Below, one piece after another: positions 13,667 through 19,237 of a DNA stretch of 64,000 nt. The notes under the pieces are model-generated. The model was given only the letters and a program-made list of their open reading frames with translations, was not told where the DNA came from and made no database searches. The DNA is taken from positions 1 to 64,000 of the forward strand of contig NZ_BBOX01000001.1 of assembly GCF_001553455.1 (NCBI RefSeq). The letters run 5' to 3'. This DNA is from Streptomyces hygroscopicus subsp. hygroscopicus (GTDB taxonomy: Bacteria; Actinomycetota; Actinomycetes; Streptomycetales; Streptomycetaceae). A program made the translations under genes and the position numbers. Each line of letters begins with the position of its first letter. Positions within the stretch are counted from its first letter, which is position 1.

Positions 13667-13717
13667 CGAATCGCGGCTAAAATGGCGCTCGTCCTGATAG
13701 AAGGAGGTCACGACACT

Positions 13718-15526
13718 TTGACAGTTCCTTCTCAATTATCCTCCTGCCCGCCCCCTCCTGACGGACCGCCGCGATCTCCCGGCTCATGCCCCGATACCGA
13801 GACCACCCGTCTGCTCTGCGCAGGGTCCTATCTCTCCGCTCGCTTCCGGCGTCGTGTCGTGAACCTGCTCGTCAGGCACGATGAAAGGGCGCTTGCGCCA
13901 GCGGCCGGTGTCGATGTCTTCGCGGTGCTGGCCAACGCCAGGCGGGCCGGCAGGCTCGAGCGGACAACGGGCATCTGGGCCGCCGTGGTGTGGGCGCTCT
14001 TCGCACTGGCAGATCTACTCCTCCCGCATGCGCCTTTCATCTGCAATGCGAAGAACGGGACAGGCAGAGAAGGCGGGGATTCGAGCTGGGACTTCCCGAG
14101 CATCTTCGCATTCGTCTTCGACCTTCCCTACGATTTGATCGAAGCAATGGCGGATCACCCCGTATGTGAAATCGACCATGTTTTCTGGGTGTTCAACTAC
14201 GCCTTCGTGTGCTTGCTGCTGTGGTTGACAGGGAGTGTCCCGGGCTGCGGCAGGAACGCGTACGAGCCGAGTGGCCCAGCGCCCAGACGGCGAGGTGGGT
14301 TCTTGTTCGCCGTGGTCGGCGCTGGCGCGCTGGCCTCCTACTGGGCGACAGCGTTCGTCGCCGTGTTGAGAAACCCCGCCCACTGGGTGGCGGTGGTATT
14401 CCCGTTGTTGCTGGCCGTCCCCGTGTGGGTACACCGCCGCACCGTCGAGCGGACCATGCGTGATCAGTTCCGCCCCAATGCCTTCGAGCAACGGTCCCCG
14501 GAGAGGCTGACGGGGCCCGCGTGGCTCCGGGCTGTCGGGGAGGTCATCAAGAGGGAACAGGACTCGAAGATCGTCCTGTACGACACGGTCGGGGGGTTCG
14601 CCGGGCTGGGCCGGGCGGTGCTGGACCCCACGCCCGTCGTGATGGACCTGAAGCGCGAGCCGGACGCCGATTCCGAGCCGCTCACCACCGCCGACGTGCT
14701 GGGCCGCCTTCGGGACGAGCTGGAGGGATTCCGCGAGGACACCGGTCCCCGATCGAAGGTGGACCGTCTCAAGGAGGTGCAGATCGACGAACTGGTCTAC
14801 CTGCCGGCGGGGCCGCCGAGGGACTCGGTCGACCATGGGCAGGCGGCTGCGGAAGGGCACCTCCGCGAGGCGGTCGAAGAAGGCGGCGAGGCCCGGCGGC
14901 ACTACTTGTGGGCCCGGATCAGCGGGTGGGAACAGCAGGTGGTGGTCACTGCTCTGGTGCGGGTCTACACCCAGGGCAAGTCACTGACGCTGGAGGTCTG
15001 CCTCTACGTCATGGACCCGTTGCAGCCGGAGTTCGAGCTCGTCGACGCGATCGCCGAACGGGGCCCCGACCTTCCGGCGACCTCGGTGGTACGAGCCCTG
15101 CTGGCCGCTCCGGCCGCCGCAGTCGCCGCTATCTTCTCCGCCGCGGGCTCAGCGGGTGACGCGACGATCTCGGTGAAGCGACGGTTCGAGCGCCAGAACG
15201 GCTGGGACACCCCGTCCAAGGGGGCCTCGGGCTCCGTACGCGAACTCGCGTCCGCGTACCAGAAGTCACCGATCCGGGAGACGGATGTCAACCGCTATCT
15301 CAACGCGCTCGTGGAGCGCATCGGCACCGGGGCGGTCCAAGCGCTGCGGGAAAAGGGCTACGACACCGGGCAACTGGAGCAGCAAGTCATCCAGGTGAGC
15401 AACGGGGGGATCCTCATCGGGGCGATGAGCGGGGGCGCGGTGGCGGCGGGGCGGGGCGCCCAAGCACGAACCGCGGGTGGACCGCGCCAGGCGAGGGGCC
15501 GTGTCCTTGGACGGCAGCGGTTCTGA
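13718..15526 (+). CDS. Membrane protein with C-terminal glycine-rich motif
   Basis: First gene of a three-gene operon; function unknown. From TTG 13718 (AAGGAGG ten bases upstream) the protein has about 602 residues. Predicted membrane helices lie at about 86-103, 154-171, 195-215 and 222-238, followed by a cytosolic region of about 360 residues with no domain that I can name (DSKIVLYDTVGGFAGLGRAV, then YLWARISGWEQQVVVTALVR). Residues 563-578 read GGILIGAMSGGAVAAG, a motif that recurs twice in the next protein. Leu7 is TTA (13736-13738). A sensor or signalling membrane protein that pairs with its neighbour through the motif is my inference. An upstream start is unlikely because it would run into the HTH remnant. 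Confidence 0.75.
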   Translation: MTVPSQLSSCPPPPDGPPRSPGSCPDTETTRLLCAGSYLSARFRRRVVNLLVRHDERALAPAAGVDVFAVLANARRAGRLERTTGIWAAVVWALFALADLLLPHAPFICNAKNGTGREGGDSSWDFPSIFAFVFDLPYDLIEAMADHPVCEIDHVFWVFNYAFVCLLLWLTGSVPGCGRNAYEPSGPAPRRRGGFLFAVVGAGALASYWATAFVAVLRNPAHWVAVVFPLLLAVPVWVHRRTVERTMRDQFRPNAFEQRSPERLTGPAWLRAVGEVIKREQDSKIVLYDTVGGFAGLGRAVLDPTPVVMDLKREPDADSEPLTTADVLGRLRDELEGFREDTGPRSKVDRLKEVQIDELVYLPAGPPRDSVDHGQAAAEGHLREAVEEGGEARRHYLWARISGWEQQVVVTALVRVYTQGKSLTLEVCLYVMDPLQPEFELVDAIAERGPDLPATSVVRALLAAPAAAVAAIFSAAGSAGDATISVKRRFERQNGWDTPSKGASGSVRELASAYQKSPIRETDVNRYLNALVERIGTGAVQALREKGYDTGQLEQQVIQVSNGGILIGAMSGGAVAAGRGAQARTAGGPRQARGRVLGRQRF

Positions 15527-15847
15527 AGAGGCGACGAGGCATGTGGCAGGCACACAGAACAGGGAGGCAGCGTGAGCGAGCATACGGACGGACGTGACGG
15601 TGCGGCGGGCGCCCACCGCGACGCGGGCGCCGACGAGTGCCCGTCGGGTGCGGAGTCGCCGGGCGGCCTCGTCATCGGTGAGCTCAACGGAGGAGTCGTT
15701 GCCGCAGGGCCGCGGGCGGAGGCCGAGGAATCCGGCAGACGGATCGGTCGGCCCGCCGACGCGAGTGCACTGCCCTCCCCCGTCGTGACACCGCTCCCGG
15801 GCGGCATCGTCATCGGACGGATGACCGGGGGTGCGGCGGCTTCAGGC
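15404..15847 (+). repeat. Shared GG-x-x-IG..GG..A.G protein motif (3 copies)
   Basis: Three 16-residue copies are encoded across two genes: GGILIGAMSGGAVAAG (15404-15451, end of the membrane protein), GGLVIGELNGGVVAAG (15662-15709) and GGIVIGRMTGGAAASG (15800-15847), both in the 179-residue protein. Each is followed by a short R/P-x-A-x-A stretch. The pattern of alternating hydrophobics and glycines suggests a short beta-arcade or amyloid-like interaction motif; this is inference. Confidence 0.8.
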
Positions 15848-16111
15848 CCTGAAGCCCGGGCCACCCACCGGTCGGAGCGGTTCTTCGAGGCCACGCCTGA
15901 ACTGATCGAGGCGCTCGTGCTGTTGCGCGGTGAGCCAGGTGAACTGCGCACGGAAGCTGCCCTGGCCGAAGAGGAGATCCAGGCCACCAAGAGGGTGGAG
16001 CAGGGACGGCCGCGAAGGCTCGCTTCGCTCGCGGCCCAGGCTGCCGGGTCCGTGAGTGGGCAGACCGCGGCCGGGGTGACCGCCCAGACGATCACCGGCA
16101 TGCCGGCATGA
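15572..16111 (+). CDS. 179-aa protein with two glycine-rich motifs
   Basis: Second gene of the operon, 45 bp after the membrane protein; GTG start with GGGAGG four bases away. The N-terminal half is low-complexity and carries two copies of the shared motif at residues 31-46 and 77-92. The C-terminal half is helical and charged (TPELIEALVLLRGEPGELRT, then EAALAEEEIQATKRVEQGRP) and ends in an Ala/Gly/Thr-rich tail with a weak third motif-like stretch. No catalytic domain or membrane helix is seen. It probably binds the membrane protein, or itself, through the motif (inference). Its stop overlaps the next start by ATGA. Confidence 0.75.
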   Translation: MSEHTDGRDGAAGAHRDAGADECPSGAESPGGLVIGELNGGVVAAGPRAEAEESGRRIGRPADASALPSPVVTPLPGGIVIGRMTGGAAASGPEARATHRSERFFEATPELIEALVLLRGEPGELRTEAALAEEEIQATKRVEQGRPRRLASLAAQAAGSVSGQTAAGVTAQTITGMPA

Positions 16112-16275
16112 GCAGTTGGGATGCGGAGAAACAGCGGTGGGACCCCTCAGTGGATCTGCATCTCCGCCAAAGGCGCGCCAGGGCCCTGGAGCGGAGATTG
16201 CGCATCACGGCCGTCGTACTAGCGGTGCTGGCCGTAGTCACGATCGGGGGCGCACAGCTGGCCGACTTCTCCTGA
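16108..16275 (+). CDS. 55-aa single-helix membrane protein
   Basis: Third gene of the operon, translationally coupled to the second by an ATGA overlap (16108-16111). The product has a charged N-terminus rich in Arg (LRQRRARALERRLR at about 19-32) and one hydrophobic helix (ITAVVLAVLAVVTIGGAQLA, 33-52) running to the C-terminus, so it should be tail-anchored with the N-terminus in the cytosol. Function unknown; holin- or adaptor-like roles are possible but unsupported. It would be missed by length-limited gene finders. Confidence 0.65.
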   Translation: MSSWDAEKQRWDPSVDLHLRQRRARALERRLRITAVVLAVLAVVTIGGAQLADFS

Positions 16276-16575: not shown

Positions 16576-16890
16576 ATGCGCCTGCCCGGGTCCCCTCCGG
16601 TGCACCCGCGCGGGCGGGTGCTGGTGGACCTGGCCTGCGCGATCGTCCTGGGTGCCGAGGCGATCGGCGACATCGCGCTGCTGGAGCACCAGCGTGCGGT
16701 CCTCGGCCAGGTCGCCTCCCTCGCGACCGTGTGGCGGGTGCTGGACGAGATGGGCGCACGGCAACGGCGCCGGATCGCCCGGGCCCGCGCCGCGGTCCGC
16801 CGCCGGATGTGGAAGCTGCTCGAGCAGCGCGAGGACGGGTTCTGCTGGATCGCCGTGGACGGCAGGCCGCTTGCAGGCGGGACCGCGGAC
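16576..16890 (+). mobile_element. IS1380-type transposase, N-terminal fragment
   Basis: The frame reads GRVLVDLACAIVLGAEAIGD, LEHQRAVLGQVASLATVWRV, LDEMGARQRRRIARARAAV, matching the N-terminal region of IS1380-family transposases. After DGFCWIAVDGRPLAG the similarity ends, before the DDE catalytic residues. No terminal repeats were found. It is an inactive scrap. Confidence 0.7.
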
Positions 16891-17088
16891 CAGCGCCGGT
16901 CGCCTCGCCGGATCTCTCTGCTCCCTTTTCCCGAGCGCGGCAAAACATCACCGGCATCCAAGGGCGGGCTCGCCCATACGGCAGGCGGGCATCGGGAGCG
17001 CAATGAGCGATATACGGAACGGCGGAACGCATGATACGGAATACGGTCAGCCGTCATGGATTCAGTCGTGGGACATAGTTTCGACAGG

Positions 17089-17155: not shown

Positions 17156-19237
17156 TTGTCGAAAATGAACGATCCCGCTGTGCGTGCGGTTGAATCGGAG
17201 CAGGATTATGTGTCCTCCTTGTATGCGTTGCTCACCGAGCGGCTTTCCGAAGCGCGCGTGCACCGGGCGAGTGTGCTGAAGGCCCCGGCGGACAACGCCA
17301 ATGAGGCCTACGAGAGAGAAATCGCCGCCGAGCGTCTGGCCAAGGAAATCGGCCGGCTGGAGGGCGCCGAAAAGGGGCTGGTCTTCGGGCGCATCGACCG
17401 GACGGACGGCACGGCCCTGCGCATCGGGCGGATCGGATTGCACAGGGAGGAGGATGACCTGCCGCTGCTCGTGGACTGGCGCGCGAACGCGGCGCGGCCC
17501 TTCTACGAGGCGACACCGGTCCACCCGATGGACCTGCGGCGGCGCCGGCACCTGCGCCTCGAGGAGCGCACGGTCATCTCGGTGAGCGACGAACTGCTGG
17601 ACGGGACCGCCCCGACCGACGAGGACGTCGTGGGGGACGGCCCGTTGACCGAGGCCCTGTCGGCACGGCGTACCGGCAGGATGCAGGCGGCCGTCGCGAC
17701 GCTGCAGGCCGAGCAGGACGAGATCGTCCGCTCCGCCCACCGCGGGGTGACCGTGGTGCAGGGCGGGCCCGGCACCGGCAAGACAGTGGTCGCCCTGCAC
17801 CGTGCGGCCTATGTGCTGTACGCGTTCCCGCGCGCCGCGCAGGAGGGTGTCCTGGTGGTGGGCCCGAACGCCCGGTTCCTCGACTACATCTCCCAGGTCC
17901 TTCCCTCGCTCGGAGAGAACGACGTCGTCCTGGCGACCTGCCAGGAACTGGCCGGAGTGCCCACGGACACGGTGGACCCGTTCGATACGGCGCGGCTCAA
18001 GGGCAGCTCCGACCTCGCCGACGCCTTGGCCGGCCTGCTGTGCGCCCACCAAGCCCCCGCCGGTGACTTCACCGTGCGGGTCGGACAGGAACGGGTTCAC
18101 CTCTCCGGCGAGGAAGTCGCCACGGCACGCGACGCCGCCGTGACGGCCACGACGGGGCACAACCCCGCGCGCCAGGTGTTCAAAGAGCTCTTGGTCGACG
18201 CCGTCACCGACGCGATGCAACGCGACATGGGGGACCTCCTGGAGCAGATCGACGCCGATACCGAAAGGATGACGGGCATCGACCTCGACCGGTTCACGGG
18301 AGCCGCCCAGCGCCGTGCCGAAGGTGCGGCCGGCTCAGGTCCGGTCCACGAGCTGGACCTGGACGCCATCCGAGCCGATCTCCTCGACGACACCGGCGTC
18401 GACCGAGCGGTCGAGGTGTTGTGGCCGCGGCTGGTACCCGGTGACCTCGTGAAGGCGCTCCTGACGAACGCCGACGCGCTCGCCGAGCGCCTGCTCCGTC
18501 TGACCGCGCAGGAGCGGTCCCTTCTGCTGCGCGGTCCGGACGACCCGTGGACCGATGCCGATGTGCCGTTGCTGGACGAGGCGGCGAGCCTGGTCGACGG
18601 TCCCCCCGAGCGGACGTACGGGCACGTCGTCGTCGACGAGGCGCAGGAACTGACCGCCATGCAGTGGCGGATGATCGTCCGCCGCTGCCCGTCGCGGTCG
18701 ATGACGCTGGTGGGTGACTTCGCCCAGGCAGGCCCGGTCGCGACCGCACGCGACTGGAAGGAAGCACTGAGCCCCCACGTCGGGCCACGGTTCACACTGC
18801 ACGAGCTGACCGTCAGCTACCGCACAACGCAGCAGATCCTGGGAAGTGTCCGGGACCTGCTCACGCGGATCGCTCCGGACCAGAAGCCCACACGGTCACT
18901 GCGAAGCGGTGAGAGCCCTCGCACCGTGACCACACCTCCGGACGGGTTGGTCGCCGCCGTCGTTCAGGAACTCCGCGCCCAGCGCACCGCGCACCCGGGC
19001 GAGCTGCTGGGGGTGATCTGCGCGGACACCAGGGTGAGCGAGCTGACGGCTCAGGGCGCCGCTCACCACGCACGCATCGTGCCGGCGTCCGAAGCACGCG
19101 GCCTGGAATTCGACGGAATCGTCGTCATGAACCCGGAGGAAATCATCACGAACCGCCCCGGTGGGGAACGGGACTTGTACGTAGCCCTGACCCGGGCCAC
19201 CAAGCGCCTGTGCACCATCACCGTCCGGCCCGCCTGA
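17156..19237 (+). CDS. HelD/HelR-type RNA-polymerase recycling helicase
   Basis: About 693 residues of a UvrD/Rep-like superfamily-1 ATPase. An N-terminal coiled coil (10-75) precedes Walker A GGPGTGKT at 203-210; the Walker B VVVDEAQEL and the C-terminal motifs SEARGLEFDGIVV and LYVALTRATKRL are intact. HelD-family proteins remove stalled RNA polymerase from DNA, and the HelR branch confers rifamycin tolerance by displacing the drug (established for the family). The start is TTG 17156 with AAGGAG seven bases upstream; longer frames upstream run through the IS1380 remnant. I do not see a GC-rich rifamycin-associated element before it, but an iron-box-like site is present. Confidence 0.88.
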   Translation: MSKMNDPAVRAVESEQDYVSSLYALLTERLSEARVHRASVLKAPADNANEAYEREIAAERLAKEIGRLEGAEKGLVFGRIDRTDGTALRIGRIGLHREEDDLPLLVDWRANAARPFYEATPVHPMDLRRRRHLRLEERTVISVSDELLDGTAPTDEDVVGDGPLTEALSARRTGRMQAAVATLQAEQDEIVRSAHRGVTVVQGGPGTGKTVVALHRAAYVLYAFPRAAQEGVLVVGPNARFLDYISQVLPSLGENDVVLATCQELAGVPTDTVDPFDTARLKGSSDLADALAGLLCAHQAPAGDFTVRVGQERVHLSGEEVATARDAAVTATTGHNPARQVFKELLVDAVTDAMQRDMGDLLEQIDADTERMTGIDLDRFTGAAQRRAEGAAGSGPVHELDLDAIRADLLDDTGVDRAVEVLWPRLVPGDLVKALLTNADALAERLLRLTAQERSLLLRGPDDPWTDADVPLLDEAASLVDGPPERTYGHVVVDEAQELTAMQWRMIVRRCPSRSMTLVGDFAQAGPVATARDWKEALSPHVGPRFTLHELTVSYRTTQQILGSVRDLLTRIAPDQKPTRSLRSGESPRTVTTPPDGLVAAVVQELRAQRTAHPGELLGVICADTRVSELTAQGAAHHARIVPASEARGLEFDGIVVMNPEEIITNRPGGERDLYVALTRATKRLCTITVRPA

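What the first reader, a model, noticed from the sequence alone, without database searches (positions are those of the whole stretch)
13718..16275. Uncharacterised three-gene membrane operon whose products share a repeated glycine-rich motif
Seen: a four-helix membrane protein ends with GGILIGAMSGGAVAAG; the adjacent 179-aa protein has GGLVIGELNGGVVAAG and GGIVIGRMTGGAAASG; a third, ATGA-coupled gene makes a 55-aa single-helix membrane protein. Known: bacterial amyloid signalling sequences and RHIM-like motifs are short, beta-prone, glycine-spaced and are shared between a receptor-type protein and a neighbouring partner gene. Inference: the motif could be a homotypic assembly signal linking a membrane sensor to a soluble partner, with the small protein as membrane effector. 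Neither the cytosolic domain nor the small protein matches a family I know.
Basis: partly seen in the sequence, partly recalled or inferred. Interest (0 to 1): 0.8.

Follow-up and report, generated by a model that had tools for sequence, protein, structure and literature searches.

The report
Membrane receptor–partner pair with matched motifs
Two neighbouring Streptomyces genes, one for a membrane protein and one for a small helical protein, carry matching short glycine-spaced tags that change together from system to system, as if the tags were a lock-and-key assembly signal, possibly amyloid-like, that works without the usual NLR immune receptor.

Summary
The membrane protein carries a short glycine-spaced motif near its C-terminus and the next protein carries two copies. 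In the whole 9.46-Mb genome a profile of the motif finds only six strong places, three here and three in a paralogous operon; the next match has E 0.028. Related operons are common in the genus (150 ORF1 loci read). Motif sequence differs widely between operons, yet neighbours match: 136 of 143 pairs beat all composition shuffles, against 0 of 143 in each of two controls. Within the motif, the two unrelated proteins of one operon resemble each other more than the same protein does across clusters in 79-91% of comparisons. In genomes with two systems, own beats cross-pairing in 31 of 32 comparisons; the exception is the window itself. A homotypic signal linking a membrane protein to a soluble partner is thus strongly supported; that it is amyloid is plausible and untested. 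The 55-aa protein is a shortened member of a WDxxxQxW single-helix family, not a distinct effector. The arrangement resembles NLR/BASS amyloid signalosomes but has no NLR and the opposite polarity.

The parts
13718..15526 (+). ORF1: membrane protein with a large cytosolic domain and a C-terminal motif (602 aa, TTG start, AAGGAGG at 13701-13707)
   Evidence: family conserved in the genus
13916..14467 (+). membrane part of ORF1 (residues 67-250; helices 67-101, 157-173, 192-218, 224-250); both ends read as cytosolic, loop 102-156 acid-rich and read as outside
   Evidence: AlphaFold2 model; charge and hydropathy counts; the membrane assignment is mine
14519..15352 (+). cytosolic alpha/beta domain of ORF1 (residues 268-545); weak helix-grip (StARkin/Bet v1) or KA1-like resemblance only
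15404..15451 (+). ORF1 C-terminal motif GGILIGAMSGGAVAAG in a tail of low model confidence
15572..16111 (+). ORF2: 179-aa partner, motif-bearing N-terminal part plus a C-terminal helical domain
   Evidence: model made on the L066 relative
15662..15709 (+). ORF2 motif copy 1, GGLVIGELNGGVVAAG
15800..15847 (+). ORF2 motif copy 2, GGIVIGRMTGGAAASG (two copies in 16 of 17 ORF2 partners of ORF1s with this motif class)
15884..16108 (+). ORF2 helical domain (bounds by alignment with relatives); its best C-terminal hydrophobic 17-mer is weaker (0.74) than in the paralogue (1.47)
16108..16275 (+). ORF3: WDAEKQRW signature plus one membrane helix; the rest of the longer relatives is missing

Best explanation
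The operon encodes a membrane-anchored receptor (ORF1, with ORF3 as a likely co-sensor) and a soluble partner (ORF2) that recognise each other through the same short beta-prone motif. SHOWN by computation: the unit, the motif pairing, its co-variation and its insulation between most paralogous systems. INFERRED: a signal at the envelope clusters ORF1; its flexible C-terminal motif then templates ordered assembly of the N-terminal motif of ORF2, probably as a cross-beta (amyloid-type) assembly as in NLR/BASS, RHIM or HET-S signalling; the clustered helical domains of ORF2, most of which end in a fairly hydrophobic helix, then act at the membrane. It works like an amyloid signalosome in which a transmembrane protein takes the place of the NLR. 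Graded: motif-based homotypic recognition about 0.8; cross-beta/amyloid nature about 0.5; membrane-damaging output about 0.3.
For: Own ORF1-tail/ORF2-head scores beat all 200 shuffles in 134 of 145 pairs and 136 of 143; controls 0 of 143, 0 of 143 and 2 of 38. With the motif region of ORF1 isolated, own pairing averages 68-71 against 31-35 for other operons, 0 of 20000 permutations reaching it at each of five clustering levels; own beats ORF1-ORF1 across clusters in 79-91% and ORF2-ORF2 in 83-93% of comparisons; Mantel r 0.75, partial r 0.34 given ORF1 core identity, best of 500 permutations 0.09. Same-genome own beats cross in 31 of 32 comparisons in 16 genomes. Matched motifs of quite different sequence in a second branch and in another class of the phylum (L265). 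Motif regions have low model confidence (read as disorder); an ORF2 relative is a four-helix bundle. Median aligned motif length 27, within the 21-40 given for BASS motifs (PMC12261475, passages).
Against: No test of beta or amyloid structure was possible. The RHIM glutamine is absent in the window motif, and similarity to the published BASS3 peptide is weak overall (p <= 0.05 in 37 and 32 of 143 for the two sides) and not significant for the window (0.07, 0.54). When the 80-residue ORF1 tail is used whole, ORF1s resemble each other more than their partners (own beats ORF1-ORF1 in only 33-49%), because the stretch before the motif is conserved; the 79-91% holds for the 45 residues after an anchor. 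Codons at shared residues are identical more often (0.65) than expected (0.56 from pooled usage; 0.54 within the same genes), so DNA-level duplication or conversion contributes. Some ORF1 genes keep a motif tail without a recognisable ORF2 (L049, L224, L228). The window ORF1 scores higher with its paralogue's ORF2 than with its own (78 against 71), and the window copy looks like a diverging paralogue (weak last helix, short ORF3, 45-bp gap).
Confidence: 0.6

Rival explanations
1. Non-amyloid docking: the matched motifs pair as a discrete beta-hairpin or beta-solenoid interface of fixed stoichiometry between ORF1 and ORF2, with no templated polymer. The system is then an ordinary membrane scaffold with a docked partner.
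For: All pairing evidence fits any homotypic contact; ORF2 of the window class usually holds two copies (16 of 17), which would suit multivalent docking.
Against: Like motifs on both partners, low-confidence flexible tails, wide diversification and 20-40 residue length are recorded habits of amyloid signalling motifs (PMC8086366, passages); ordinary docking pairs are usually complementary rather than alike (general knowledge).
Confidence: 0.25
2. Neutral homogenisation: the motif was duplicated between neighbouring genes and is kept alike by gene conversion, without functional pairing.
For: Codon identity at shared residues is 0.648 (1344 of 2075) against 0.536 expected within the same genes or 0.56 from pooled usage; the genes are adjacent.
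Against: A third of shared residues use different codons and the stretches are short (median 27 aligned residues, 56% identity), a poor substrate for conversion. Pairing holds in 136 of 143 operons with widely different motifs, while the ORF1 stretch upstream and the ORF2 domain show no such similarity (0 of 143 each).
Confidence: 0.1
3. The unit is a developmental or envelope-homeostasis module, not conflict or cell death: the third-gene ectodomain senses envelope state and the assembly localises ORF2 in hyphae. (This concerns the output and does not exclude motif-based assembly.)
For: Malate dehydrogenase lies within 8 kb in 24 of 40 branch-1 regions, a stable chromosomal place unlike mobile defence genes; the third-gene signature occurs in 116 of 116 branch-1 pairs; no PADLOC match for the window proteins.
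Against: The second branch is sporadic (28 of 295 genomes) and lies in changing surroundings (8 regions read); motif insulation between paralogues resembles conflict signalling (inference). The window copy is not near malate dehydrogenase.
Confidence: 0.35

Closest known systems
NLR/Bell gene pairs with bacterial amyloid signalling sequences (BASS1-10)
   Same: Adjacent genes share a 20-40 residue motif, many motif families, small helical-bundle partner, filamentous actinobacteria among the hosts (PMC7889193, PMC8086366, PMC12261475, PMC9815663: passages read)
   Different: No NLR: the receptor-side protein is a membrane protein. Polarity is reversed (motif at the receptor C-terminus and in the partner's N-terminal part). 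No profile of BASS1-10 was at hand to compare.
RHIM / PP / BASS3 motifs
   Same: Short glycine-spaced beta-prone motif shared by two partners; some classes here contain a GDxN core like that of the BASS3 peptide printed in PMC8086366
   Different: The glutamine of the RHIM core (recalled) is not in the window motif; similarity to the BASS3 peptide is weak over the set and not significant in the window
EACC1 membrane-associated two-gene system (PMC7159879, passages)
   Same: Two-gene membrane-linked module of multicellular bacteria
   Different: EACC1 is a single-helix protein upstream of a caspase-fused protein; here a multi-helix membrane protein has a helical partner and a shared motif
DUF5955 (PF19380)
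   Same: ORF2 C-terminal domains give sub-threshold matches (6 of 34 at E <= 0.1, best 1.3e-4)
   Different: The ten canonical DUF5955 loci printed are stand-alone 86-97 aa proteins with no such motif

Membership tests
NLR/BASS amyloid signalosome | similar short motif in products of two adjacent genes | tested here: met
   136 of 143 pairs beat all shuffles, controls 0 of 143 twice
NLR/BASS amyloid signalosome | receptor gene encodes an NLR (NB-ARC/NACHT plus repeats) | tested here: not met
   no NLR domain in Pfam scans of 34 ORF1 members. Of 49 regions, four hold a gene over 350 aa with a P-loop of the chosen pattern; one of these was scanned and is an NB-ARC/TPR gene (L272). The pattern is narrow: it missed a second NB-ARC gene in L272.
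NLR/BASS amyloid signalosome | motif at the C-terminus of the helical effector and N-terminus of the receptor | tested here: not met
   reversed: C-terminus of ORF1, N-terminal part of ORF2
NLR/BASS amyloid signalosome | small alpha-helical bundle partner with a hydrophobic helix (Bell-like) | tested here: inconclusive
   four-helix bundle modelled for one relative; best 17-mer in the last 40 residues >= 1.2 in 139 and >= 1.6 in 77 of 143, window copy 0.74; homology to Bell not tested
NLR/BASS amyloid signalosome | motif matches a BASS1-10 profile | not testable with these tools
   profiles not held; one published BASS3 peptide gave weak similarity
NLR/BASS amyloid signalosome | motif forms amyloid or prion | not testable with these tools
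   needs peptides or a prion assay
RHIM | (I/V)-Q-(I/V/L)-G core (recalled) | tested here: not met
   window motifs read ILIG, LVIG, IVIG
EACC1 two-gene system | single-helix EACC1 protein followed by a caspase-fused gene | tested here: not met
   no caspase domain found in ORF1 or ORF2 by Pfam or NCBIfam; ORF1 has several helices
DUF5955 | Pfam gathering score 27.1 bits | tested here: not met
   window ORF2 no match; best of ten ORF2 relatives scanned singly 22.0 bits

The most novel reading that the evidence does not exclude
Streptomyces carries a large, previously unrecognised class of NLR-independent amyloid signalling systems: a transmembrane receptor nucleates a small helical partner through a matched cross-beta motif, with ten or more motif specificities and, in some genomes, two mutually insulated systems.
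Probability: 0.45. Interest if true: 0.9.

Novelty: new variant of a known kind. Interest (0 to 1): 0.8.

Why it matters
A 2021 review asks whether signalling amyloids exist in fungal and bacterial pathways not dependent on NLRs (PMC7889193, passages). This family is a concrete, common candidate in a tractable genus. It supplies 143 scored natural receptor/partner pairs with diverse, apparently insulated specificities, which makes motif recognition, cross-seeding and transmembrane triggering of assembly directly testable. The published BASS search, as described in the passages read, looked for motifs repeated in adjacent Bell and NLR genes (PMC9815663), so it would be expected to miss it.

Tried and rejected
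Family libraries: Pfam, NCBIfam and PADLOC gave no significant match for the three window proteins. Pfam on relatives gave sub-threshold DUF5955 for ORF2, and PsbP (5 of 28) and DUF3558 (4 of 28) for ORF3, at E <= 0.1.

Folds: ORF1 gave no Foldseek hit at E <= 0.001; VIA rows (KA1 4yom Z 8.0, rmsd 2.3, 89 aligned; StARkin/Bet v1 rows Z about 5.8-7.5 around residues 290-550) are in the range the tool calls a common arrangement. ORF2: no Foldseek hit at E <= 0.001; best VIA Z 11.0 (2fu2, 77 aligned, rmsd 2.1), within what it gives for helical bundles in general. No HeLo or MLKL chain was among the 50 rows shown in each list, which excludes nothing. Weak sequence matches to solved chains were not pursued.

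Fusion: an ORF1-ORF2 fusion seemed present in L073 but was an artefact of a wrong reading frame and is not used.

First version of the concerted test: with whole 80-residue ORF1 tails, own pairing beat ORF1-ORF1 in only 33-49% of comparisons; I then cut ORF1 to the 45 residues after an alignment anchor chosen without reference to ORF2.

Motif elsewhere: the profile search in 41 genomes found strong places (E below 1e-4) only in the two operons of the own genome and one operon of G018, so no link of this motif class to NLR genes was found there.

Hydropathy counts alone give 1 to 5 hydrophobic segments in ORF1 relatives, so the four helices rest on the window model.

Other relatives: L113, L114, L116, L117 and L120 are ORF1-like proteins without motif; L266 (another lineage) ends with a motif-like tail but only 317 bp of contig remain behind it. 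One search's 171 of 295 therefore may include motif-less paralogues, and that call scored few candidates per genome. L209 and L224 seem to lack ORF2 (ORF3 follows), L049 and L228 show none; L146 (ORF1) and L133 (ORF2) look broken.

BASS3 resemblance was tested and is weak. The plasmid collection held two distant ORF1 matches only.

Literature: listings 12, 23, 24, 27, 39, 83, 84, 87, 94 and 97 in the open library showed no description of this operon; passages of six papers were read; the original BASS paper was not found in these listings and was not read.

Rows dropped before counts: of 150 ORF1 loci, L049, L073, L224, L228 and L112 had no usable ORF2 (L112 was completed later as L265, and is not in the counts); L146 and L209 were left out; L149 and L152 were left out as repeats of L043 and L041. 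Loci came from the upper part of the and listings and are not a random sample.
Full report
WHAT IS THERE. The window lies in a 9.46-Mb genome; relatives found in named records are Streptomyces. ORF1 (13718-15526) starts at TTG behind AAGGAGG, ORF2 (15572-16111) follows after 45 bp, and ORF3 (16108-16275) overlaps it by ATGA. ORF1 is modelled (mean pLDDT 78.8) with helices at 67-101, 157-173, 192-218 and 224-250, which I read as membrane helices, a cytosolic domain at 268-545 and a tail of pLDDT under 50 that holds the motif; charges fit both ends inside and an acidic outside loop. An ORF2 relative (L066) is modelled with a low-confidence motif part and a four-helix bundle at residues 51-137.

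THE MOTIF IS SPECIFIC. A 31-position profile built from seven motif stretches (six from the two operons of this genome, one from a relative) was searched through six frames of the own genome. It gives six places at E <= 4.4e-11, the same three in the window operon and three in a paralogous operon on contig C370; the next place has E 0.028, so there is no further copy. The paralogue has the same gene order and a 202-aa third gene.

THE UNIT IS CONSERVED. ORF1 matches 171 of 295 genomes of the genus at E <= 1e-5, which may include motif-less paralogues, and a profile matches 13 of 396 genomes across the phylum (3 of 236 genera). I read 150 ORF1 loci; 145 gave a usable ORF2 next door. In the 143 pairs scored, ORF2 overlaps the end of ORF1 in 125 and begins within 50 bp of it in 141. 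Two branches appear. In branch 1 a third gene with a WDxxxQxW-type signature (a permissive pattern) follows in 116 of 116 pairs, while the same pattern is found in 0 of 24 branch-2 pairs with enough sequence (27 in all). Malate dehydrogenase lies within 8 kb in 24 of 40 branch-1 regions, but not in the window. Branch 2 is a two-gene unit in 28 of 295 genomes (31 matched; three of these only at branch-1 loci), in changing surroundings. A pair in another class of the phylum (L265; 1 of 3 genomes of that class) has its own matched motif.

THE MOTIF CO-VARIES. Motif sequence differs widely between operons, yet neighbours match. Examples (ORF1 / ORF2): window GGILIGAMSGGAVAAG / GGLVIGELNGGVVAAG; L185 NSAVNFGANGTANNTN / NSAVNFGAHGTANNVN; L175 GAFAFGEHGVANNQEAA / GAFAFGAHGVANNYEAA; L168 GNVTVGHHNTVTS / GNVTIGDHNTVTS; L132 NSGVINYGEMGSVQNQPGAVGS / SSGVVNYGAMGNVQNQPGATNS; L141 GDNNAPIQNVAGSDI / GNNNAPNQNVVGQNI; L153 GDNNQVNTGVLGGAMKQ / GDSNQINTGTVKGSMSQ. 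Weak cases exist, such as L182 (8 of 28 identical) and L143 (12 of 30). ORF1 motifs fall into 10 to 24 clusters depending on the cut. Own scores exceed all 200 composition shuffles in 134 of 145 pairs and 136 of 143. The ORF1 stretch just upstream against ORF2 heads gives 0 of 143, ORF1 tails against the ORF2 helical domain 0 of 143, and ORF1 tails against ORF3 2 of 38.

DESCENT ALONE DOES NOT EXPLAIN IT. With one operon per ORF1-core cluster (12 to 100 clusters), own ORF1-ORF2 motif scores average 68-71 against 31-35 for mismatched operons; 0 of 20000 permutations reach the own mean at each of five thresholds. Own similarity between these two unrelated proteins exceeds ORF1-ORF1 similarity across clusters in 79-91% of comparisons and ORF2-ORF2 in 83-93%. 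The own partner is the single best ORF2 for an ORF1 in only 27-66% of cases, as related operons share motif classes. Motif similarity of ORF1s predicts that of ORF2s (r 0.75), also with ORF1 core identity held constant (partial r 0.34, best of 500 permutations 0.09). A first version with whole 80-residue ORF1 tails gave the same permutation result, but own pairing beat ORF1-ORF1 in only 33-49% of comparisons, because the stretch before the motif is conserved in ORF1s. In 16 genomes with two scored pairs, own beats cross in 31 of 32 comparisons. The one exception is the window ORF1, which scores 78 with its paralogue's ORF2 and 71 with its own, so these two systems may cross-talk. Codon identity at shared residues (0.648, 1344 of 2075) exceeds the expectation within the same genes (0.536) and from pooled usage (0.56), so duplication or conversion contributes something, though a third of the codons differ.

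THE THIRD GENE. At E <= 0.1, PsbP matches 5 of 28 members (best 1.5e-7) and DUF3558 4 of 28 (best 1.1e-10), so different ectodomains sit on one signature and helix. The window ORF3 keeps signature and helix and ends there. Among the called relatives, L045 (90 aa) and L050 (116 aa) are also short, the others longer. A co-sensor role is inference.

HOW IT MOST LIKELY WORKS. Shown by computation: operon, motif pairing, co-variation, insulation. Inferred: clustering of ORF1 exposes or concentrates its tail, which templates the N-terminal motif of ORF2, and the clustered ORF2 bundles act at the membrane. The best hydrophobic 17-mer in the last 40 residues of ORF2 reaches 1.2 or more in 139 and 1.6 or more in 77 of 143. 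The window copy is weaker (0.74 against 1.47 in the paralogue), so the window operon may be a diverging copy and the paralogue the better one to test.

WHAT IT WORKS LIKE AND WHETHER IT IS ONE. BASS systems pair an NLR N-terminus with the C-terminus of a helical Bell protein encoded by an adjacent gene, in ten families (PMC7889193, PMC8086366: passages). Here two defining features are not met: no NLR and reversed polarity. So it works like a BASS signalosome but is not filed as a member. Amyloid formation is untested. Similarity to a published amyloid-forming BASS3 peptide is modest over the set and not significant in the window.

NOVELTY. No description was found in the searches listed under Tried and rejected; the original BASS paper was not read. 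I rate it a new variant of a known kind.

Noticed in passing
L272:2269-4374 and L272:5-2026 (minus strand): Two NB-ARC/TPR (NLR-type) genes (Pfam) lie just downstream of a branch-2 motif-matched pair; the second begins with a GRVFQAERDQHIT stretch and a small gene between ends with GRVYQAGRDQQIT, which look RHIM-like (resemblance recalled).
   Followed up: partly
L113, L114, L116, L117, L120: A paralogous single-gene family shares the ORF1 cytosolic domain (profile positions about 133-385) but has no visible motif tail and no ORF2 in the stretches read.
   Followed up: partly
L075-L084: DUF5955 is a stand-alone helical protein found in 36 of 37 genus genomes searched; it may be the motif-less relative of the ORF2 domain.
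   Followed up: partly
window 16576-17034: ORF downstream of the operon looks like the N-terminal fragment of an insertion-sequence transposase (recalled); no Pfam match.
   Followed up: partly
window 17210-19237: UvrD/SF1-type helicase gene about 900 bp downstream of the operon (Pfam AAA_19 1.2e-10, UvrD-helicase 3.8e-9).
   Followed up: no
L064, L069, L070: These branch-1 loci carry two third-gene-like proteins in a row, both with FCPTAYC near the end, suggesting duplication of the sensor gene.
   Followed up: no
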